Positions 2,320 to 18,700 of a stretch of 20,874 nt of DNA are shown piece after piece; within the stretch, counting starts at the first letter, position 1; every line of letters begins with the position of its first letter. The notes below the pieces were generated by a model. The model had not been told where the DNA came from. It saw nothing but the letters and a program-made list of their open reading frames with translations, and made no database searches. The position numbers and the translations under genes are program-made. The DNA is from a virus: IMG/VR virus record IMGVR_UViG_3300031951_001453, positions 1 through 20,874 of that record. One strand, 5' to 3'.

Positions 2320-2754
2320 TACTTTTTATACATCTGGTACGACAATTGCCGAAAAATGTTCTATGTTGGTATGCATGAAGGACAAATAACCGATGGTTAT
2401 GTATCTTCATCCCGTTGGTTTAACGGAGAATATCAATATAGACCAAATGATTTCAAACGTAAAATTATCAAAACCTTTAATGATAGGAAGTCAGCCAGAA
2501 AAGAAGAGGTAAGACTACTTCGTATGATTAAAGAATCTGAGTTTGGTAAAAAATACTACAATCTCAAAAATGGTCGTAAGAAAGGTTCTATTCCTATAAA
2601 CAAAGGTAAACCAATGTCAATTGAACAACGACAAAAACTTAGTTTAATTAAACTTGGAAAACCTTCTGCAAGAAAAGGCATTCCAAATAAAGTTAAAGTA
2701 GATTGTTTGGTTAATAAGGAACAACCTACAAATCCCCATTCGATTACCGTTTAA
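2314..2754 (+). CDS. GIY-YIG-type homing endonuclease with NUMOD3 motif
   Basis: This 146-residue protein is the only convincing plus-strand protein gene. It has GGAGG 6 nt before the ATG. The N-terminal part (YFLYIWYDNC, then MFYVGMHEG and YVSSSRWF) fits a divergent GIY-YIG nuclease fold, with the paired Tyr motifs at about residues 3-6 and 17-21. A basic helical region follows (KRKIIKTFNDRKSARKEEV, Glu64/65 candidate metal ligands). A NUMOD3 DNA-binding motif lies at about 92-122 (NKGKPMSIEQRQKLSLIKLG, then KPSARKG), typical of phage homing endonucleases. The gene converges with the tmRNA gene. Its last codons and stop (2739-2754) are the antisense of tmRNA helix 5, and its TAA shares bases with the tag stop. 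It is probably a free-standing mobile endonuclease that spread into the tmRNA locus. The target site is unknown; I infer it lies in or near the tmRNA gene. Confidence 0.8.
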   Translation: MQYFLYIWYDNCRKMFYVGMHEGQITDGYVSSSRWFNGEYQYRPNDFKRKIIKTFNDRKSARKEEVRLLRMIKESEFGKKYYNLKNGRKKGSIPINKGKPMSIEQRQKLSLIKLGKPSARKGIPNKVKVDCLVNKEQPTNPHSITV

Positions 2755-2869
2755 GCGGCAAGAGCGAAGCGGCTATCATTAGCTGCGTTTACTTTGATTT
2801 AGTTTTAACATCTTCTCTGATGAGCTGTCCACTTCTGTACTTGTTGCCCTGTCGAAACTATGCAGCCCC
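2739..2869 (-). ncRNA. ssrA: permuted tmRNA, coding (mRNA-like) piece
   Basis: The minus strand from 2869 reads GGGGCTGCATAGTTTCGACA, then GGG: the conserved 5' end of tmRNA, with the acceptor half GGGGCTG and the GTTTCGACAGGG D-domain. A CAGAA further on (2834-2830) can pair with TTCTG in the acceptor piece as part of helix P2. Next comes the tag frame (2786-2751), then helix 5: TTGCCG-CTTAAA-CGGTAA with the stop codon in the loop, extended by TTCG/CGAA across a small internal loop (ending at 2739). The true 3' end is unknown. It may stop soon after helix 5, as in two-piece tmRNAs that have lost pseudoknots, or continue into sequence antisense to the homing endonuclease. A 8-bp stem (AGGTTGTT/AACAATCT) lies just beyond. 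The acceptor-piece gene lies upstream, so the gene is circularly permuted. Confidence 0.9.
2751..2786 (-). other. tmRNA tag-peptide reading frame
   Basis: Following TAAAC, the frame from a GCA resume codon (2786-2784) reads AANDSRFALAA and stops at TAA (2753-2751). The TAAAC-GCA junction parallels TAGTC-GCA of E. coli tmRNA. The ALAA end is the degron recognised by ClpXP, ClpAP and related proteases. ANDSRFALAA is close to the betaproteobacterial ANDERFALAA type as I recall it. The resume codon could instead be the following GCT; experiment would decide. Confidence 0.85.
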
Positions 2870-2955
2870 ATCAAAAGTATACTGGTTTGGATTATTTGGA
2901 TGTCCGTGATACCTTAGTCATCTTCATTATCGCACGGCGCAGACCTTTATACTTT
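2870..2955 (-). other. intervening segment of the permuted tmRNA precursor
   Basis: These 86 nt separate the acceptor-piece CCA end (2956) from the coding-piece 5' end (2869) and should be cut out of the precursor. The two ends pair. The acceptor stem CAGCTCC/GGGGCTG (7 bp) continues as A-T, one C-A mismatch, C-G, then AAAAGTATA (2956-2948) with TATACTTTT (2881-2873): 18 pairs over 19 positions. A CCGTG/CACGG stem can form within. No protein frame was recognised. Confidence 0.8.
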
Positions 2956-3021
2956 TGGTGGAGCTGGGGGGATTTGCACCCCCGTCCAGAACACTTTTCT
3001 AGTTGCTTCATACAACCATAA
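2956..3021 (-). ncRNA. ssrA: permuted tmRNA, acceptor piece
   Basis: The piece ends GGGGGTGCAAATCCCCC, then CAGCTCC, A and an encoded CCA (2958-2956): a T-arm with a 5-bp stem and 7-nt loop, the 3' acceptor half, discriminator A and CCA. The acceptor half pairs with GGGGCTG of the coding piece over 7 bp, including the G3-U pair that marks alanine identity for AlaRS. TTCTGGAC just 5' of the T-arm matches the usual tmRNA context and can pair with CAGAA of the coding piece. GTTG...CAAC may form a small hairpin near the 5' end. The 5' end near 3021 is estimated from the promoter. The T-loop has G where U55 is usual. Encoding this piece upstream of the coding piece is the two-piece tmRNA arrangement. 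Confidence 0.9.
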
Positions 3022-3027
3022 CTTCAC

Positions 3028-3056
3028 ATTATAACACAATAAAATTAGTTTGTCAA
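3028..3056 (-). promoter_or_regulatory. full-consensus sigma70 promoter for the tmRNA
   Basis: On the minus strand, TTGACA (3056-3051), a 17-nt spacer and TATAAT (3033-3028) match the housekeeping consensus at all 12 positions. Initiation about 7 nt downstream of the -10 gives a start near 3021, just before the acceptor piece. The -35 lies only a few bases before the end of the upstream gene, whose stop codon (3045-3047) is inside the spacer. Confidence 0.9.
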
Positions 3057-3707
3057 TTTTTTTTCAGTAACTTCACCAATTAGTTGGTTAGTATTTGCTG
3101 AGGTCACTATTTTTTCAAATCCAATTTTAAGTGGATCATTACTTCCAACCAACATAAACGATTGTTCTGGAATTAATCCAATTTGTTGCAATGCTTTCCA
3201 TGTATGAGGATTTGACATTGCATTACGAAGTTTTGCAGGTGATGGATGTCCGAATGTCATAACCTCCGCATAAATTTCTTTACCAATCATTGCAGTAAAT
3301 TCATTAGCCGCATTAGCCTCAAACATTTCTTCATCAGTATATGGTGTACCATCTGGATGTTTTATTCTGGTTGGTTCAGCAATCTCATAACATTCTGCCA
3401 ATAATTTTTCTAAAATTTTAATCTCTTGTCTATTCAATTCAAATGCTTCATTCTGAATCTGTAAACTAGATTCAAATTCTAAAATGTCCGCTTCCATGCT
3501 AAGTATAACATGTGGTAATGCATTAGTATCTTTTAAATTTTGCAATTCCATTAGTTTTGCTCGATGTTTCATTTCTGAAACTTTTTCCAATTCGGCCGAG
3601 CGAAGCCTACCTTCCAAAAACCCTTTTAGAGTTTTAATCTTTTCCCAAACCGTTTCACCAATTACTTGATAACGATAGTTAAATTCAGAATTTAATTTTG
3701 CTGGCAT
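3045..3707 (-). CDS. unknown protein following the tail-repeat gene
   Basis: The protein has 220 residues from ATG 3707, with GGAG 7 nt upstream; the in-frame TTG just before it is a less likely start. There is no signal peptide or membrane segment. The N-terminal half is strongly helical and charged with heptad-like spacing (WEKIKTLKGFLEGRLRSAE, later NRQEIKILEKLLAECYEIA), suggesting a coiled coil. The second half is mixed, with a PDGTPYTDEEM loop and a helical SPAKLRNAMSNPHTWKAL segment. I do not recognise the family. Its place immediately downstream of the putative tail gene, with only an A/T-rich 30-nt gap, suggests a tail or tail-assembly accessory protein, but this is positional inference. 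The 3' end carries the tmRNA promoter. Confidence 0.75.
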   Translation of the reverse strand: MPAKLNSEFNYRYQVIGETVWEKIKTLKGFLEGRLRSAELEKVSEMKHRAKLMELQNLKDTNALPHVILSMEADILEFESSLQIQNEAFELNRQEIKILEKLLAECYEIAEPTRIKHPDGTPYTDEEMFEANAANEFTAMIGKEIYAEVMTFGHPSPAKLRNAMSNPHTWKALQQIGLIPEQSFMLVGSNDPLKIGFEKIVTSANTNQLIGEVTEKKLTN

Positions 3708-3737: not shown

Positions 3738-4853
3738 TTAAACGAAATTTGAATATGCAACACCAGCTACAGCTGTTTTGGTTGTGCCGAGATTAGTGCC
3801 ACTGGTGATGAATGATCCTAAACTATTCAATCTTAAAGCTCCAGTTAAACCGTTGAAAACACCAGAGCTAGTACCCCATGCAAATGTTGCATTAGTGACA
3901 TTATATGTACAACCAGTATGATATGAACGACCTGTCACTGTGGTTGTATACTGAGCAAGTGTAACACCACCTTCCATCAAACTTAATCCATTTGTCCAAC
4001 CACCAAGTGCAGTTGTTTGACCACCAAAAAAAGCTGCTTTAGTGTCGCCATAACCAGCTGCAGCTAAGAAGTGTCTAGCTGTAGTACCTGTGGCGATTGT
4101 ATCACTACCAATAACGCCAGTATTTGTTACTTGATTAAAGGAGTTTAAGAATGTTAGTGTACTATTGCTATTAAGAATAGCTCCAAAAGCAAATACAGCT
4201 TTATCATAACTATGTGGCGCACATGCAGCACCCCATCTATATGCGGCGGAAGTGTTGTTATCACTACCAAGAACGCCAGTATTTGTTATCAAATTAAATA
4301 CATTTATTACACCATTTACAGGTGTTGCAGGTCCATTATTTCCAGCAAAACCAAAACCAACAATTGCTTTGTCGTAACCATATTTGCTACCAGAAGATTC
4401 TGTTCTAGGTGTACCAACTATTGAAGTGTCGCTAGCTACTACACCAGTGTTTGAAATTAAGTTGCTTAAGTTTTTATAAGCTGGTGATTGACCTCTGTAT
4501 ATACCATATACAACAATGCCTTTATCAAGTCCATATGATGTGCCAACAGCACTTTCTCTACCTGGGCCAGCTGTTGTAACATCAGCAGCAATCGAACCCG
4601 AATTCGACAATTTATTACTTACATTGATAGGTATAACACTACCGCCTTGAGTTCCAAAAACAAAGATTCCGTATATGGTCGCACCTCTGTATTTTGAAAA
4701 CAAATTAAACATTTGAAATGGCGGAGCATTTACTCTAGACAACTGACGAACATCTAGCTGACCCAAACCAATCGTGTCAGTTTCATTTTTTCCCAATTCA
4801 ACATTTATATCAGATAAACTGATTGGACCTGTTCCTGCTGCCCTTGTTACCAT
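3738..4853 (-). CDS. Kelch-like repeat protein, probable tail fibre or receptor-binding protein
   Basis: The protein has 371 residues; AAGGA lies 7 nt before the ATG. Residues 1-55 form a distinct N-terminal segment (GPISLSDINVELGKN, then LSRVNAPPFQMFNLFSKYRG), like adaptor ends of phage tail proteins with SLSDI motifs. From about residue 60 the rest is built from roughly 50-residue repeats whose clearest strand is DKAIVGFG or similar (near 61, 110, 161, 217, 271, 320 and a partial one near 360). Each is linked by NLI(S/T)NTGV.(A/G)SD turns. This looks like a six- or seven-bladed beta-propeller. Repeats rich in Gly, Ser, Thr and Asn and free of charge are usual in surface-exposed phage receptor-binding proteins. 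The tail assignment is inferred. A late-promoter-like motif precedes it. Confidence 0.75.
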   Translation of the reverse strand: MVTRAAGTGPISLSDINVELGKNETDTIGLGQLDVRQLSRVNAPPFQMFNLFSKYRGATIYGIFVFGTQGGSVIPINVSNKLSNSGSIAADVTTAGPGRESAVGTSYGLDKGIVVYGIYRGQSPAYKNLSNLISNTGVVASDTSIVGTPRTESSGSKYGYDKAIVGFGFAGNNGPATPVNGVINVFNLITNTGVLGSDNNTSAAYRWGAACAPHSYDKAVFAFGAILNSNSTLTFLNSFNQVTNTGVIGSDTIATGTTARHFLAAAGYGDTKAAFFGGQTTALGGWTNGLSLMEGGVTLAQYTTTVTGRSYHTGCTYNVTNATFAWGTSSGVFNGLTGALRLNSLGSFITSGTNLGTTKTAVAGVAYSNFV

Positions 4854-8604: not shown

Positions 8605-8754
8605 TTACCAATGCCTTATAACGCCTGCAACAATGAAAATGTTTGTGATGATGTATGATAACACAATTAGAGTTCTAAGGCAAGCGATAATGTTTGCCTC
8701 ACGGTCGGAGGATCCTGCCTTCTCACCCAAGGCTTTTGCCCACAGTCTCCACAT
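8605..8754 (-). CDS. 49-residue membrane protein
   Basis: The ATG at 8754 overlaps the upstream stop as ATGA. The product begins MWRLWAKALGEKAGSSDREA and continues with a hydrophobic LIVLSYIITNIFIVAGVI segment ending IRHW, a single-pass membrane protein. I recall very similar MWRLWAKALGEKA-type proteins in T4-like phages of aquatic hosts. It is the only convincing frame in this 150-nt stretch. Function is unknown. Confidence 0.8.
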   Translation of the reverse strand: MWRLWAKALGEKAGSSDREANIIACLRTLIVLSYIITNIFIVAGVIRHW

Positions 8755-9260
8755 CACTCAATGAAACCTTCTTCCGTCTGCGGAGGTGTTCTAGGTTCTG
8801 CATCCGACCAACGGTATTCGTAGATGGGTTTATCCCGTGGTGTATACGGAAAGGTTACCGGTAATTGACATCCAGCACTGGTATAATATGATTTATATGT
8901 ATGGCCTTTTTCGTCACGGTACCATTCCCAATAGACTTTGCCGTCAATGTCATAGCATTCACCATTCGAATCTTTGAATACTGATGAACATCGTTTGTTT
9001 TGAAACCGTGGTTCACCTTTATAATCACTAATGTCTATCCATTCATCATCTTCACCGGTCAGTGGTGATATAGGTTTGAAATCCAACAATTTAGCCAAAA
9101 TGTTTAGTGCGTATCTACCAGAAAATCCAGAATGACCTTCTTCAGCAAACACCTCGACCATTTTTAGAATGTGTCCACGCATCGCACCGTTGTATTCATC
9201 TTCGTGGGTTAAACCAATACGATCTAACTCAGATTCTGCATAAGATACTAAATTACTCAT
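8754..9260 (-). CDS. conserved phage protein, acidic and Trp/Tyr-rich
   Basis: The protein has 168 residues from ATG 9260, 2 nt after the upstream stop; an in-frame GTG at 9272 would overlap that stop. The N-terminal third is helical (SYAESELDRIGLTHEDEYN, then MRGHILKMVEVFAEEGHSG). The rest is a beta-rich domain with repeated WIDIS, VYWEWYRDEKG and IYEYRWSD segments. I recall related proteins throughout T4-like and other aquatic phages, without known function. Its 3' end overlaps the 49-residue gene. Confidence 0.8.
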   Translation of the reverse strand: MSNLVSYAESELDRIGLTHEDEYNGAMRGHILKMVEVFAEEGHSGFSGRYALNILAKLLDFKPISPLTGEDDEWIDISDYKGEPRFQNKRCSSVFKDSNGECYDIDGKVYWEWYRDEKGHTYKSYYTSAGCQLPVTFPYTPRDKPIYEYRWSDAEPRTPPQTEEGFIE

Positions 9261-9262
9261 AA

Positions 9263-9976
9263 TTAATCCCACAATCCTTGGTAGTATTTGCCAAACAAAC
9301 GGAATCCGTTGGCCATTCTTTCTTCAACTTTCTTGATACCATCATAATCACATACGTAGGTATCATTTGGGCCACGCCTCATTTCGGTGTACTTGTGTTC
9401 ACCTTTAGGCACTTCGTTGCCCTTAACATCCACAGGCACCCACAGTATATCATGTTCACCTGAACGGTATGCATCTTGCCAAGAATCATCTACCTTGTGT
9501 TCAAATGCAAAAATGATTTCATCAAGAACATATACCCAACGCTTGTGGTGATTAAGATCGGTGTCCCATTCGTTTTCTTTAGGCCAACAAGCCCAAGACT
9601 TCAATTCGGTAGGAACATCATCATCATCAACAAACGGACTACCGTGTTGATTTGCTTTCAACTGCTTCAACATTGGCAGAATGATATTGGATAATGTATG
9701 ATCCATATTCCAAGTGTCCCACTTATCAATCTTCACATAATTGATTTGTGGGTGAATAAAGTCCAATACACGTTGAATTGCACGGCTGATAGGTGTCAAA
9801 CGGTCAGCCCACTTTTCAACCCATTCTGGATGGTCAACATACGGAAGTTGTTTATCAAAAAAACTAATACTTTTATCACGGCTGCACTTAGACCAGTCAG
9901 TCCAAAAGAACATATAGTCCAAAACGGTGTATGGGCTAATCCAGTGATTGCGGTAGTTTGATTTGTAAATCTTCAT
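9263..9976 (-). CDS. conserved phage protein, Trp-rich, function unknown
   Basis: The protein has 237 residues, and its start overlaps the epimerase stop as ATGA. It begins MKIYKSNYRNHWISPYTVLD. It contains a conserved WDTWNMDHTLSNIILPMLKQ segment, then HGSPFVDDDDVPTEL and a RWVYVLDEIIFAFEHK helix. This pattern is common across phages of marine and freshwater bacteria. It has no signal peptide, membrane segment or recognised catalytic motif. Confidence 0.8.
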   Translation of the reverse strand: MKIYKSNYRNHWISPYTVLDYMFFWTDWSKCSRDKSISFFDKQLPYVDHPEWVEKWADRLTPISRAIQRVLDFIHPQINYVKIDKWDTWNMDHTLSNIILPMLKQLKANQHGSPFVDDDDVPTELKSWACWPKENEWDTDLNHHKRWVYVLDEIIFAFEHKVDDSWQDAYRSGEHDILWVPVDVKGNEVPKGEHKYTEMRRGPNDTYVCDYDGIKKVEERMANGFRLFGKYYQGLWD

Positions 9977-10797
9977 TGTGGAACTCTTAACATTTCTTCT
10001 ATTGTAAAGGATTTTTGCATGTATGGCGAGACATTTTTAAGTACCGATTTGGCCATATCACCATATCTACGTGGCAAATAATTTACCTTGAAGTCACAAC
10101 CATTTACCAGTTTAAATTTGTCCACAATTTGTTGTACAGTGTGGCCTGTGCCAGTGCCTAGGTTCTCAACCAATAAATTGGATGGTCTTTGGACTGCCAT
10201 TTTGATAGCATTGCACACTTCAAGTACATGAACATAATCACGCTCGGCGGTACCATCAATTGTATCATAATCATTCCCGTAAAGATTGAACTCACCTGTT
10301 TCCCTTGCTTTCATTAAATTGTAAAACAAACCATCCCAGTTTGTTGGACCATAACCAGCACTACCCGTTACATTGTAAAAACGGAAGATGGTATAATCCT
10401 TGTTGTTCATTATACAGTATTGGCGAATCATAGATTCCACACTTGCTTTCGACAAAGCATATGGGCTGCAAGGATTTTCTGCGGCACCAGTAGATGCAAA
10501 AATGAAATTATCAAAGCTGATGTTTTCCAACAACTTCAAAGTACCTGTAACATTGTTGCGGTAGTATTCCATCGGCGCAATCATAGATTGACCAACATTG
10601 ACCAATGCAGCCAAATGAACGACTGCATCATAGTGGTCATAGTGGTCAAATCCGGATGTAATGTCCTGCATGACAAATTTCTCTGCCATTACAGGTGTGA
10701 ATACACGATCCAAACCAACCACATATTCTTTTTCCAAGACCTTACATAGGTGCTGGCCAATATAACCAGAACAACCTGTTACGAGAATCTTTCTCAT
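9973..10797 (-). CDS. NAD-dependent sugar epimerase/dehydratase (GalE-like, short-chain extended family)
   Basis: The protein has 274 residues, with its start in an ATGA overlap. The N-terminus has the Rossmann nucleotide motif TGCSGYIG (residues 8-15). VVHLAAL follows near 59-65, a STGAAENPCSPYALSKAS segment carries the active-site Ser/Thr and Tyr-xxx-Lys, and a NVTGSAGYGP motif lies in the sugar-binding region. Family members epimerise or dehydrate NDP-sugars. In a phage this may feed glycosylation of DNA or of surface structures, or change host lipopolysaccharide. The chain is shorter than GalE (about 340), so part of the C-terminal substrate domain is reduced; the exact sugar cannot be told. 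Confidence 0.85.
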   Translation of the reverse strand: MRKILVTGCSGYIGQHLCKVLEKEYVVGLDRVFTPVMAEKFVMQDITSGFDHYDHYDAVVHLAALVNVGQSMIAPMEYYRNNVTGTLKLLENISFDNFIFASTGAAENPCSPYALSKASVESMIRQYCIMNNKDYTIFRFYNVTGSAGYGPTNWDGLFYNLMKARETGEFNLYGNDYDTIDGTAERDYVHVLEVCNAIKMAVQRPSNLLVENLGTGTGHTVQQIVDKFKLVNGCDFKVNYLPRRYGDMAKSVLKNVSPYMQKSFTIEEMLRVPQ

Positions 10798-11096
10798 TTT
10801 AAACCAAAACTTTCATCTTGATATTCAACAGAGTTGATTGATTCCATCTTCTTGGAAATATCCCAAGACTTGCAATAGTCATTGTCTTTATCAAACAATT
10901 CCAAATAGTCTTGAGCAGACAATTGACGGGTAGAAACAATCACTTCATCCATGTGGTGTTGTGAAAACTCTTTGAAAGATTCTTTGCCAATTTCCATGAC
11001 GAATTCATCCGTTGCATGACCTTCTTCACGAGCTTCAATCACATAACGCATACGAAACATTGATACAGTTTCAACCAAATACAATTTCTTATCCAC
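10794..11096 (-). CDS. small acidic conserved phage protein
   Basis: The protein has 100 residues. I prefer the GTG at 11096, 8 nt after GGAG, over the TTG at 11102, which is only 2 nt from it. It begins MDKKLYLVETVSMFRMRYVI and continues with beta-strands, then EFSQHHMDEVIVSTRQLSAQ, DYLELFDKDNDY and an acidic end. Its stop overlaps the epimerase ATG. The function is unknown. Confidence 0.7.
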   Translation of the reverse strand: MDKKLYLVETVSMFRMRYVIEAREEGHATDEFVMEIGKESFKEFSQHHMDEVIVSTRQLSAQDYLELFDKDNDYCKSWDISKKMESINSVEYQDESFGLK

Positions 11097-11098
11097 GT

Positions 11099-11953
11099 TC
11101 AAATCTCCACAAATTTAAGTTTAAAACTATCAGCACGGTTTTCATAACCATCATAACCACGGGGATTACAAACGATGCGTGTAGAACCAATCATATAATC
11201 GAAATCTTCATGTGTGTGACCATGAGTCCACAATTTGATTTGTGGATGGTCCATGATAAATTCGGATAAGTCGGAACTATACCCACCATTCATAATTTCT
11301 TCTTTTTGGTATCGAGGATGTGTAGATTGTTTGCTTGGTGCATGGTGACCAACAACAACAAACTTTTGATCCCATTTACCTTCAACCATCATACGAATAT
11401 AAGACAACATTTCTTTATGGTCTTCTACCGCATCTTCTGGTGTGAAACGGCTTTCACGTTTATGGAATTTACCATCCTCATCTTTGAAGATTGTTACCCG
11501 ATTACCATTTTTAACACAACGGAAGTCATTCATCATACCCTTCATGTGTAGCAATGTGATTGGATCTTCCTTGTTCATATCTGTCCACAAGGTACCACCA
11601 ATAAAGATCGTATCTCTAATTGCAATTTGTTCTTTATCTAAGATATGAAGATTGCGGAGATAATTAAGGCGACTACGCAAATCTCCAATAGTGTTAGCGT
11701 AATCACCGTGATAGTGTTCATGGTTCCCCATAACATAAAGGACATGCGGAAATCTGTCAGAGCATTCTTGAAAGAATGTGTGCCATGCTTCAGAACGGCC
11801 AAAGCGGTCGAGAATGTCATTATTGTCCTTGTTCATCAAATCTTTAACCACACAAATATCACCAGAGAGAATAAGAACATCAGCGTTCTCGGTATTCTCT
11901 AGTGAAATTGTACCAAATTCTAGGTGTAAGTCTGAGCAGATTGCGATTTTCAT
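11099..11953 (-). CDS. calcineurin-like metallophosphoesterase
   Basis: The protein has 284 residues. The metal-binding motifs come in order: SDLHLEF (residues 8-14), LSGDI (about 29-33), GNHEHYHGDY (about 76-85), VVGHHAPS (about 200) and THGHTHEDF (near 243), then CNPRGY. These are the conserved Asp, His and Asn ligands of the metallophosphoesterase superfamily, whose members cleave phosphomono- or diesters, including cyclic nucleotides and nucleic-acid ends. The first motif begins at residue 8, so the ATG at 11953 cannot be moved far downstream. There is no Shine-Dalgarno sequence. A consensus promoter ends 6 nt before the ATG, so the mRNA is probably leaderless. It heads the run of genes down to the epimerase. 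Confidence 0.9.
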   Translation of the reverse strand: MKIAICSDLHLEFGTISLENTENADVLILSGDICVVKDLMNKDNNDILDRFGRSEAWHTFFQECSDRFPHVLYVMGNHEHYHGDYANTIGDLRSRLNYLRNLHILDKEQIAIRDTIFIGGTLWTDMNKEDPITLLHMKGMMNDFRCVKNGNRVTIFKDEDGKFHKRESRFTPEDAVEDHKEMLSYIRMMVEGKWDQKFVVVGHHAPSKQSTHPRYQKEEIMNGGYSSDLSEFIMDHPQIKLWTHGHTHEDFDYMIGSTRIVCNPRGYDGYENRADSFKLKFVEI

Positions 11954-11959
11954 AATAGT

Positions 11960-11988
11960 ATTATAACAGAAACCGGTATATATGTCAA
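11960..11988 (-). promoter_or_regulatory. full-consensus sigma70 promoter for the metallophosphoesterase run
   Basis: On the minus strand, TTGACA (11988-11983), 17 nt, and TATAAT (11965-11960) match consensus at 12 of 12 positions. The ATG follows after only 6 bases, so transcription would begin at or within a base or two of the start codon. Confidence 0.85.
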
Positions 11989-12026
11989 GTGGTTGTGTTG
12001 TTTTTTTGCGACACTCTCAGGAGCCA

Positions 12027-16536: not shown

Positions 16537-18700
16537 CTTTCACTGTATCAACTAAATTAACATACTCACACACATCGTCCTCATTTGCATAAGAACCAAA
16601 CTTGTTTATCAATGGATATCTATTTGAGAATTCCATCAATTTGCTTTTAAACTGTGCAGTCACAGCTTTAACATCAATATTATTTTGAATATTCATATTT
16701 TGCATCAATCGATTCAGCCAATGAATACCAGTCATCTTTGGTAGGCCAACAAAACTGTCCAAGAACATTTTTGCGGGACTCTTTGCATCGACACCATCAG
16801 ACACTTTTTGGTAATTATAACCGAAAATCGGATGTTTGTCAAGCCCTTCCAACACGGAAGCCATGCCGATTTTGGTATTTAACCCAGTCAAAACGGTAGT
16901 AATATGGTCTTCGATGTTAATCCAGTTGGACATTTTCTTAATGGCCTCAATATCACCTTTACGCACACCATATAGGTCGATGGCAAATTCTGGCATACCA
17001 GTTCTACGCAGCAAATCTGCCAATTCGGTTACACCGTAATGTGTATTCAATTTTTTGAATTGTGGCACAAAACCAGTCATTGGTACATAGTACATCTTTA
17101 GATTTTTATTAAATGTGTCCAAAGTACCTGCAGCACGCCACACCATGTCATTTGATGATGAGCTTCTAGATGGACCACCACGCTTTTCAAGTTTGAGAAT
17201 GGTTACGTTTTTACCGAAACCATTACCAACACCAGCCTTACGTGGTTTCTCAGTCAAACTTGATGCAGCCATACGCTGTGCAGCAGGTGGATTGTGCAAC
17301 ATTGCATAGAATGAAACCAAGTCCATTGGATGTTCTTTATCCAACCTATCTAACACAAACACAGATTCACGATAAGAGTTTTTCTTCTCTTTGTTACGGA
17401 AATGGTGCTTAGCACGTTCAAATGAACCTGTCTTACAATCATTCTCAACAAACATTGAGTTGTCGTTAACCTCGATATTGAAATACTCAATACGCTTTTG
17501 GTCTTTGTCATAGGATACACAAGGACTACAATTCTTGCAACGGCTAATACCACGCTCAGTTTCGAACTTCTTGATATGAATGTTCATAGCTTTCAAATCA
17601 AGCAAATTGGCCTTGATATCAAATGAATGATTCCATGCACTTACATCAAACAAAGGGAAATTGGTGGCGGTTACATAATCAAACACCGCAACTTGCCACA
17701 AATCTTGGCGTTTCTTGTCATACAAAAACTTTGATCGTTCCCATTCACCTTCAACCGCATCAGCTTCAGTAGCAAGAACCTTGGTCAATGCAGAGTTAAC
17801 TGCAACCAATTTTTTGCGAATAGAATCAATCGTCAGCGGAATGTAGGACAAACCTTCACGACTTGCTTGAAAGTCCAACTCGCCGATGCCAAACTCCATA
17901 ACAAGGCCACATTTTAACAATTTGTGTAGGCCTTCAAGTGCTTGTTCTGCTTGTGGTACATCAATTGGATATGCAATATTACCCATCACAGCAATGGATG
18001 AAGAATTACGACCATAACCATCATATTTGCGTGAATGAACACCAGGAATAATATTCTTGGTTTCATATTCAACACGTTCGATGGCGATTGTGTTACCTGT
18101 GATTGTAGGCAATACAGGGAACCAACGATACACGCTACGTGATTCATCGGTGAATTTACTAAAATCGTACCTGTCATTGACGGAGAATTTTACCTCAACG
18201 CCATTATGTTCTGTTACCTGCTCTTCACCCATCAGAGCAATGGATGGCACACCAACATCATTAATGAAGGCAGAATAAATGCCTTTGCGGCCATTTTGAA
18301 TGGCAGTAACGGTGAAGTTATCAGTGTAGGAGAATGGAGATTTTGAACCAAGACCAAGAGCACCAATGAAGTCGTTGGATTCTGTTTTGGTTGATTCGAA
18401 ATATGTGGTGTAAATTTTGGTCACTTGGTCATGCGACAAACCAGTACCAAAATCACGGATAGAAAACCACGGTTCAAGCGTGGTTGGAAGATGCACCTCA
18501 AACGGCTGTGTGGTGCCGGCGGCGGTGTGAGAATCAATCGCATTGCACGAAAGCTCACGGATGATCGCCTTAATTTTATTGGCGTATAAGCCAGAGCTAA
18601 GGATATTGAAGGCCTTAGCAGAATTGCGTATACGGAATTCACCGATTTCGCCTACATTAGATAACACGGCTTCCGCCTGAGGTGCGTTATTCAAAATCAT
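16529..18700 (-). CDS. rIIA: rIIA-like protein with GHKL ATPase domain
   Basis: The protein has 723 residues, close to T4 rIIA (725), and AAGG lies 6 nt before the ATG. The N-terminal GHKL (Hsp90/MutL-type) ATPase domain has IIRELSCNAIDSH (N-box Glu49, Asn53), FSIRDFGTGLS (Asp83, Gly85, Gly87) and GALGLGSKSPF (113-123). FQASREGLSY near 277-286 is the second-domain motif. A compact Cys cluster (C388, C391, C394 in RCKNCSPC) could bind metal. In T4, rIIA with rIIB controls lysis timing and Rex exclusion. The C-terminal half is less conserved. The gene has its own near-consensus promoter, and rIIB follows with an 8-nt overlap. Confidence 0.92.
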   Translation of the reverse strand: MILNNAPQAEAVLSNVGEIGEFRIRNSAKAFNILSSGLYANKIKAIIRELSCNAIDSHTAAGTTQPFEVHLPTTLEPWFSIRDFGTGLSHDQVTKIYTTYFESTKTESNDFIGALGLGSKSPFSYTDNFTVTAIQNGRKGIYSAFINDVGVPSIALMGEEQVTEHNGVEVKFSVNDRYDFSKFTDESRSVYRWFPVLPTITGNTIAIERVEYETKNIIPGVHSRKYDGYGRNSSSIAVMGNIAYPIDVPQAEQALEGLHKLLKCGLVMEFGIGELDFQASREGLSYIPLTIDSIRKKLVAVNSALTKVLATEADAVEGEWERSKFLYDKKRQDLWQVAVFDYVTATNFPLFDVSAWNHSFDIKANLLDLKAMNIHIKKFETERGISRCKNCSPCVSYDKDQKRIEYFNIEVNDNSMFVENDCKTGSFERAKHHFRNKEKKNSYRESVFVLDRLDKEHPMDLVSFYAMLHNPPAAQRMAASSLTEKPRKAGVGNGFGKNVTILKLEKRGGPSRSSSSNDMVWRAAGTLDTFNKNLKMYYVPMTGFVPQFKKLNTHYGVTELADLLRRTGMPEFAIDLYGVRKGDIEAIKKMSNWINIEDHITTVLTGLNTKIGMASVLEGLDKHPIFGYNYQKVSDGVDAKSPAKMFLDSFVGLPKMTGIHWLNRLMQNMNIQNNIDVKAVTAQFKSKLMEFSNRYPLINKFGSYANEDDVCEYVNLVDTVKGV

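What the first reader, a model, noticed from the sequence alone, without database searches (positions are those of the whole stretch)
11951..11988. Probable leaderless mRNA from a perfect promoter
TTGACA-N17-TATAAT is followed after 6 bases by the ATG of the metallophosphoesterase. The start cannot be moved downstream because the first metal-binding motif begins at residue 8. With normal initiation the transcript starts at or next to the A of ATG, and there is no Shine-Dalgarno sequence. Leaderless mRNAs favour 70S initiation and may be translated when normal initiation is impaired during infection.
Basis: partly seen in the sequence, partly recalled or inferred. Interest (0 to 1): 0.55.

Follow-up and report, generated by a model that had tools for sequence, protein, structure and literature searches.

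The report
Phage genes whose mRNAs lack leaders
An enzyme gene of an uncultured phage appears to make an mRNA that begins exactly at its start codon, with no ribosome-binding site, and dozens of other genes in related large phages share this unusual layout, which only a bench experiment can now confirm.

Summary
On the minus strand TTGACA-N17-TATAAT (11988-11960) is followed by six bases and the ATG (11953) of a metallophosphoesterase (MPE) gene, without a Shine-Dalgarno (SD) sequence. M1, D8 and H10 are invariant in 25 of 25 aligned relatives.

Comparison strengthens the leaderless reading. Of 193 distinct MPE upstream regions, 69 have a strong sigma70-type promoter within 60 nt of the ATG: in 23 the -10 box ends 5-6 nt before it, with no SD 4-mer and always a pyrimidine before the A; in 46 it ends 18-43 nt before; none ends at 7-17. 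The state changed at least 11 times on the MPE tree.

Other genes do it too: in nine related contigs plus the window, 50 of 194 promoter-linked starts lie at 5-7 nt (40 at 6); shuffled consensus gives 5 of 198; three further contigs 20 of 91; five named phages 1 of 41.

No RNA 5' end was measured. The mechanism (lambda cI type) is known; recurrent multi-gene use in large phages looks new. Translation under impaired initiation during infection is untested.

The parts
11983..11988 (-). -35 element TTGACA
   Evidence: Exact match; kept in the five leaderless clade members WIN, L004, L005, L006, L008.
11960..11968 (-). Extended -10 element TGTTATAAT
   Evidence: Exact match, 17-nt spacer; all 23 MPE regions with the -10 box 5-6 nt before the ATG have the TG.
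11954..11959 (-). Six-base gap ACTATT between -10 and ATG; no leader and no SD
   Evidence: same length in L004, L005, L006, L008.
11953..11953 (-). Predicted transcription start: A of the ATG, pyrimidine before it
   Evidence: Inference from -10 position; T or C precedes the A in 23 of 23 such MPE genes and 47 of 50 genes genome-wide.
11099..11953 (-). Metallophosphoesterase gene, 284 aa
   Evidence: PF00149 and phrog_1649; invariant M1, D8, H10; model pLDDT 89.4.
11989..12016 (-). A-rich block upstream of the -35, (G)TGTCGCAAANAAACAACA, possible UP element or regulator site
   Evidence: Conserved between leaderless and several leadered MPE promoters; function inferred.
9263..11102 (-). Downstream chain ORF102 (11102-10794), epimerase (10797-9973), ORF237 (9976-9263), each start overlapping the preceding stop by 4 nt
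   Evidence: translational coupling inferred.
8754..9272 (-). Tad3-like anti-Thoeris gene at the end of the chain, overlapping ORF237 by 10 nt
   Evidence: PF25185, E 5.2e-40; coordinates.

Best explanation
A host-type sigma70 RNA polymerase starts at the A of the MPE start codon and makes a leaderless mRNA, whose 5'-terminal AUG is recognised directly by the ribosome, as for lambda cI. The same layout is used by a sizeable minority of promoter-driven genes across a group of related large phages. In evolution the upstream region of a gene flips between two working designs: no leader, or a leader long enough to hold a ribosome-binding site. In the window the leaderless AUG would also be the ribosome entry for a chain of overlapping downstream genes. 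Shown: spacing, absence of SD, conservation, recurrence, specificity against controls, base pattern. Inferred: the 5' end itself, 5'-AUG ribosome binding, coupling, timing.
For: Exact spacing and no SD. In 193 distinct MPE upstream regions the -10-to-ATG distance is bimodal: 23 at 5-6 nt, 0 at 7-17, 46 at 18-43. 0 of the 23 have an SD 4-mer and 23 of 23 have T or C before the A. From -35 to -1 the four nearest relatives are 100, 100, 100 and 97% identical to the window while third codon positions are 84-97%; dN/dS 0.12-0.32. On a tree of 170 rows the state changes at least 11 times, 9 forced by well supported branches. Genome-wide 50 of 194 starts at 5-7 nt against 5 of 198 with shuffled consensus; further contigs 20 of 91; pyrimidine before the A in 47 of 50 against 418 of 868 called ORFs, 31 of 33 families and 19 of 20 in the further contigs. 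SD 4-mer in 0 of 50 against 72 of 107 genes at 18-35 nt. More A in codons 2-4 and weaker 5' structure than in leadered genes. M1 invariant in 25 of 25.
Against: No RNA was measured and no host is known. In the window and its four nearest leaderless relatives MPE is the only gene at 5-7 nt; rIIA and the CobS-like gene there have 27-32 nt between -10 and ATG. Absence of an SD alone is weak: 80 of 124 MPE regions without a strong nearby promoter also lack an SD 4-mer, as do 18 of the 46 with a distant one. No terminator was listed on that strand in the gap to the upstream gene, so read-through is possible. Ten named phages carrying a relative of MPE do not show the layout. Seven of 194 starts lie at 8-17 nt, so the gap is not empty genome-wide. 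Contigs share ancestry and were not drawn at random.
Confidence: 0.8

Rival explanations
1. MPE is translated mainly from a longer message read through from the upstream genes on the same strand, and the adjacent promoter adds little.
For: Upstream genes on the same strand end about 73 nt before the ATG and no terminator is listed between. Many MPE relatives without a close promoter also lack an SD 4-mer (80 of 124), so SD-less internal starts are apparently tolerated in this family.
Against: Such a message would carry no SD either (+1.0 kcal/mol). It does not explain the fixed 5-6 nt distance, the pyrimidine before the A or the recurrence. Sequence further upstream (-150 to -64) is only 33-37% identical without gaps in three of four relatives whose promoter is kept.
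Confidence: 0.1
2. The promoter mainly serves the downstream genes; MPE itself is poorly translated, and the 5-6 nt distance is a way to keep enzyme levels low from a strong promoter.
For: The next three genes overlap the preceding stop by 4 nt.
Against: Overlapping genes without strong SDs of their own (duplex energies about -2.4 to -2.8 kcal/mol) would need ribosomes arriving from MPE. MPE is under purifying selection. This is a variant of the leaderless model rather than a different 5' end.
Confidence: 0.06
3. The polymerase starts a few bases before the ATG (for example at the A three bases upstream), so the mRNA has a 1-3 nt leader rather than none.
For: Start sites vary by a few bases around the usual distance (PMC3160421, passage).
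Against: The pyrimidine-A step falls on the ATG in 23 of 23 MPE genes and 47 of 50 genes.
Confidence: 0.03
4. The spacing is a chance result of AT-rich DNA.
For: The window has 39% GC and ATG begins at about 2.9% of positions on that strand.
Against: Conservation, recurrence and the genome-wide peak against shuffled hexamers and named phages.
Confidence: 0.01

Closest known systems
Phage lambda cI transcribed from PRM (leaderless mRNA)
   Same: -10 box, six bases, ATG, with no SD: read from the lambda record as TAGATT-TAACGT-ATG. cI is described as leaderless and initiated by 70S ribosomes (PMC8630535, passage).
   Different: PRM has a weak, activator-dependent -35 and drives a repressor (recalled). 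Here the promoter is near consensus, drives an enzyme, and the layout recurs in many genes of one phage.
paaR2 of a cryptic E. coli O157:H7 prophage
   Same: Start site by 5' RACE coincides with the start codon; leaderless translation shown (PMC8630535, passages).
   Different: A single regulator gene in a prophage; no genome-wide pattern.
-10-adjacent leaderless genes of Deinococcus-Thermus
   Same: -10 motif a few base pairs before many ORFs, giving leaderless mRNA for about a third of D. radiodurans genes (PMC12340547, passages).
   Different: Cellular genomes; -35 often dispensable there. Here -35 and -10 are both near consensus and the carriers are phages.
TA-led leaderless genes of bacteria
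   Same: TATAAT-like signal around 10-12 bp upstream of the start codon taken as the sign of leaderless genes; found in 9 of 71 beta-proteobacterial genomes (PMC3160421, passages). In Burkholderia cenocepacia 72 genes start exactly at the start codon (PMC4603805, passage).
   Different: Survey and mapping of bacteria, not phages.
T4 and other named phages with sigma70-type promoters
   Same: Host-type promoters drive genes, with a -10-to-ATG distance mostly of 18-40 nt in T4 (18 of 21).
   Different: 0 of 21 starts at 5-7 nt in T4; 1 of 41 over five named phages.

Membership tests
Leaderless mRNA gene (lambda cI type) | -10 box placed so that transcription starts at or within a base or so of the start codon | tested here: met
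   Six bases between TATAAT and ATG; as in lambda cI.
Leaderless mRNA gene (lambda cI type) | No SD upstream of the start codon | tested here: met
   +1.0 kcal/mol; 0 of 23 MPE regions of this type have an SD 4-mer.
Leaderless mRNA gene (lambda cI type) | AUG (not another codon) at the 5' end | tested here: met
   ATG in the window and, by the aligned M1, in 25 of 25 relatives. Genome-wide starts were only sought at ATG, so that survey does not test it.
Leaderless mRNA gene (lambda cI type) | Measured transcript 5' end at the start codon | not testable with these tools
   No RNA data for this phage were available in any call.
Leaderless mRNA gene (lambda cI type) | Translation from the 5'-terminal AUG, resistant to kasugamycin | not testable with these tools
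   Needs a reporter assay.
Sigma70-type promoter | TTGACA and TATAAT with a 16-18 nt spacer | tested here: met
   12 of 12 positions, 17-nt spacer, TG before the -10.
Calcineurin-like metallophosphoesterase (PF00149) | Profile score above the gathering cut-off and invariant D-x-H, GD, GNH(E), GHH, GH(T)H motifs | tested here: met
   38.2 bits against 21.5; D8, H10, G31, D32, G76, N77, H78, E79, G202, H203, H204, G245, H246, H248 invariant in 25 of 25. That these motifs hold the metals is recalled.
T4-like early promoter with leader | Leader long enough to carry an SD between start site and ATG | tested here: not met
   Six bases between -10 and ATG; T4 itself 0 of 21 starts at 5-7 nt.

The most novel reading that the evidence does not exclude
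A group of large uncultured phages runs a leaderless expression programme: about a quarter of the genes started by near-consensus host-type promoters have mRNAs beginning at the AUG, across some 33 protein families including DNA metabolism genes. Genes switch repeatedly between leaderless and leadered designs. These phages would then use two ribosome-recruitment routes at once, so that the leaderless set could respond to shifts in initiation factors or ribosome state during infection.
Probability: 0.55. Interest if true: 0.72.

Novelty: new member of a known kind. Interest (0 to 1): 0.55.

Why it matters
Outside a few bacterial phyla, leaderless mRNAs are mostly known as single cases such as lambda cI. 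If dozens of promoter-driven genes in large phages are leaderless, start-codon prediction that relies on an SD will misplace genes, and there are natural pairs of leaderless and leadered alleles of the same gene behind nearly the same promoter (for example the window and L023). That makes the open question of what leaderless translation is good for directly testable.

Tried and rejected
Rejected: chance spacing; a longer or shorter MPE; leaderless starts as a trait of MPE alone; leaderless starts as a general trait of T4-like phages.

Led nowhere: relatives of MPE in the genome collection (29 pattern matches, none confirmed). A named phage with the layout at MPE: none by eye in the ten upstream regions read, of 152 records with a match. 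NCTB and Dickeya phage AD1 carry a relative of another gene of the set, without the layout; NCTB has 0 of 1 promoter-linked start at 5-7 nt. One HTVC008M gene has it (position 76469). Solved relatives of MPE by sequence: nothing meaningful; by fold PptH and Dbr1; the substrate stays unknown. A search with a 150-aa protein of the set gave only distant named relatives.

Papers: ten searches ran, some with more papers than were listed (20 of 24; 12 of 113; 10 of 192). Among the listed titles and abstract starts I recognised no report of multi-gene leaderless architecture in large phages. One paper says in passing that phage transcripts are often leaderless (PMC5312081, passage). No paper was read whole; passages only of PMC5312081, PMC8138138, PMC4603805, PMC8630535, PMC12340547, PMC3160421, PMC9004378 and PMC4631060. 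Most subscription journals are not in that library.

Limits: a simple longest-ORF caller was used, and only ATG starts. Contigs were chosen because they hold an MPE relative; of the 20 whose pattern counts were seen, nine went into the first survey and three into the second, so the choice was neither random nor blind. In one search, a first and looser count, some near starts were internal MPE codons (for example L079, L080, L274, L044); one search kept only starts that retain at least 80% of the called ORF. The promoter threshold was fixed by me before and varied: at each threshold 5-7 nt outnumbers 8-17 nt (50 to 7, 40 to 5, 22 to 4, 2 to 0). Habitat of the contigs comes from no call.

Full report
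What was claimed. Elements and coordinates are correct; gene and promoter are on the minus strand. Three perfect consensus promoters occur in the window against 0.08 expected in shuffles. The other two lie just ahead of a permuted tmRNA gene and inside rIIA.

The start codon is firm. The nearest in-frame stop is about 66 nt upstream with no common start codon between. In 25 aligned MPE proteins M1, S7, D8 and H10 are invariant. In the predicted structure (mean pLDDT 89.4) the first core strand is residues 2-7. The fold is that of calcineurin-like phosphoesterases, the best solved match being PptH at about 15% identity; the substrate is unknown.

The same gene elsewhere. Five scans of viral contigs (each capped at 80 loci) gave, with the window, 306 sequences. 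One had no findable start, three had too little upstream sequence, and after identical ones were removed 193 remained. In 69 of the 193 a strong promoter lies within 60 nt of the ATG. The -10 box ends 5 nt before the ATG in four, 6 nt in nineteen, and 18-43 nt in forty-six; none at 7-17. The 23 close ones have no SD 4-mer and always T or C before the A. Of the 46 distant ones 28 have an SD 4-mer; the 18 without are nearly all one group with 26 nt between -10 and ATG. Of the 124 without a strong close promoter 44 have an SD 4-mer. Absence of an SD is therefore weak evidence alone; the position of the promoter is the strong evidence.

The window's clade. The window, L004, L005, L006 and L008 share the six-base gap. 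From -35 to -1 three of the four relatives are identical to the window and the fourth 97%, while third positions of the first 130 codons are 84-97% identical. MPE dN/dS is 0.12-0.32 in the six comparisons possible among the window, L004, L005 and L008; L006 differs in length and was not compared. Related MPE genes (L009, L018, L023, L025, L027) have a similar promoter with 21-25 nt between -10 and ATG holding AAGGA. Loss of the leader is the simplest route (inference). On a tree of 170 MPE rows, 21 of them leaderless, the label needs at least 11 changes, 9 forced by well supported branches, against a mean of 20.1 for shuffled labels, so it is clustered yet recurrent. Gain and loss cannot be told apart, and exchange of promoter segments also counts: L256-L258 carry a promoter much like the window's although their MPE proteins are only 57-58% identical to it.

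Other genes. In nine related contigs plus the window (1.45 Mb) 624 strong promoters were found, 194 with a called ATG start within 60 nt: 2 at 0-4 nt, 8 at 5, 40 at 6, 2 at 7, 7 at 8-17, 107 at 18-35 and 28 at 36-60. Twelve searches with shuffled hexamers gave 5 of 198 starts at 5-7 nt. Three further contigs gave 20 of 91 at 5-7 nt (15 at 6) and 6 at 8-17. Named phages: T4 0 of 21, HTVC008M 1 of 11, S-CRM01 0 of 3, Milchi 0 of 5, NCTB 0 of 1. The 50 genes form 33 families. Representatives of 20 of them were scanned, ten per library: matches include a second metallophosphoesterase, a helicase, an AAA ATPase of the CobS type, MazG, GIY-YIG, a toprim protein and an exoribonuclease-like domain (2 of 10 had no match), and an endonuclease, a primase family, a radical SAM family and a DNA binding protein family (2 of 10 had no match). 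In the window and its four nearest leaderless relatives MPE is the only gene at 5-7 nt.

Base pattern. T or C precedes the ATG in 47 of 50 of these genes, against 74 of 107 genes at 18-35 nt and 418 of 868 called ORFs of 150 aa or more; by family 31 of 33; in the further contigs 19 of 20. A pyrimidine followed by a purine is the usual bacterial start-site pattern (recalled), so this hints independently that transcription starts at that A. An SD 4-mer is present in 0 of 50 against 72 of 107, and median anti-SD energy is +0.3 against -6.3 kcal/mol. These genes also have more A in codons 2-4 (0.49 against 0.39) and weaker 5' structure (mean -2.8 against -3.9 kcal/mol).

Against. No RNA was measured and no host is known. 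Read-through from upstream genes is possible, as no terminator is listed in the gap. Ten named MPE carriers show no such layout by eye. Contigs share ancestry and were not drawn at random. Only ATG starts were sought.

How it probably works. Host polymerase starts at the A; the ribosome recognises the 5'-terminal AUG, as reported for lambda cI (PMC8630535, passages), whose -10 box in the lambda record also ends six bases before the ATG. In the window the next three genes overlap the preceding stop by 4 nt, so ribosomes entering at the leaderless AUG may feed a chain that ends near a Tad3-like gene; coupling is inferred.

Novelty. Leaderless mRNAs are a known kind, in lambda and in several bacterial groups (PMC3160421, PMC12340547, PMC4603805, passages). 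The MPE gene is a new member. Recurrent, multi-gene use in large phages was not recognised in the listings of the searches named under tried and rejected, and is the part worth testing.

Noticed in passing
2660-3070, minus strand: A permuted two-piece tmRNA gene (RF04321, 111 bits; ARAGORN tag AANDSRFALAA) with a perfect sigma70-type promoter directly upstream (3056-3028). Such tmRNAs in aquatic phages, one of them behind an early promoter, are described for phage Melnitz (PMC9004378, passages)..
   Followed up: partly
8754-9272, minus strand: Tad3-like anti-Thoeris gene (PF25185, E 5.2e-40) at the end of the gene chain headed by MPE.
   Followed up: no
16814-16842, minus strand: Third perfect promoter of the window, inside rIIA and about 280 nt ahead of the next ORF, which I take for rIIB from its place (16536-15778; no family search matched it, only PADLOC was tried)..
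   Followed up: no
G003, G005, G014, G015 and in the second survey G004, G008: Many promoters at 5-7 nt share more than the hexamers: TTGACCAATAATTC followed by TTTGCTATAAT; in G002 TTTACAATAATTCG followed by TGTGATATAAT. A conserved spacer suggests a regulator site or a particular polymerase form.
   Followed up: no
11989-12016, minus strand, and L005, L008, L023, L025, L027: A block (G)TGTCGCAAANAAACAACA ahead of the -35, preceded in several relatives by GGTAAGAATCCTACG (alignment A1). Neither is explained.
   Followed up: no
11099-11953, minus strand: MPE matches the PADLOC candidate model PDC-S10 over residues 1-120 (E 1.1e-8), perhaps only through the shared phosphoesterase domain.
   Followed up: no
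G016 position 10727 and G026 position 3810, minus strand: A 92-aa gene at 6 nt in two relatives whose MPE is leadered; its start resembles the MazG-type protein of G002 by eye.
   Followed up: no
HTVC008M (NC_020484) position 76469: The only start at 5-7 nt among 41 in the named phages: a 160-aa ORF behind TTGCCA-N17-TATAAT. As this phage is in culture, its 5' end could be mapped.
   Followed up: no
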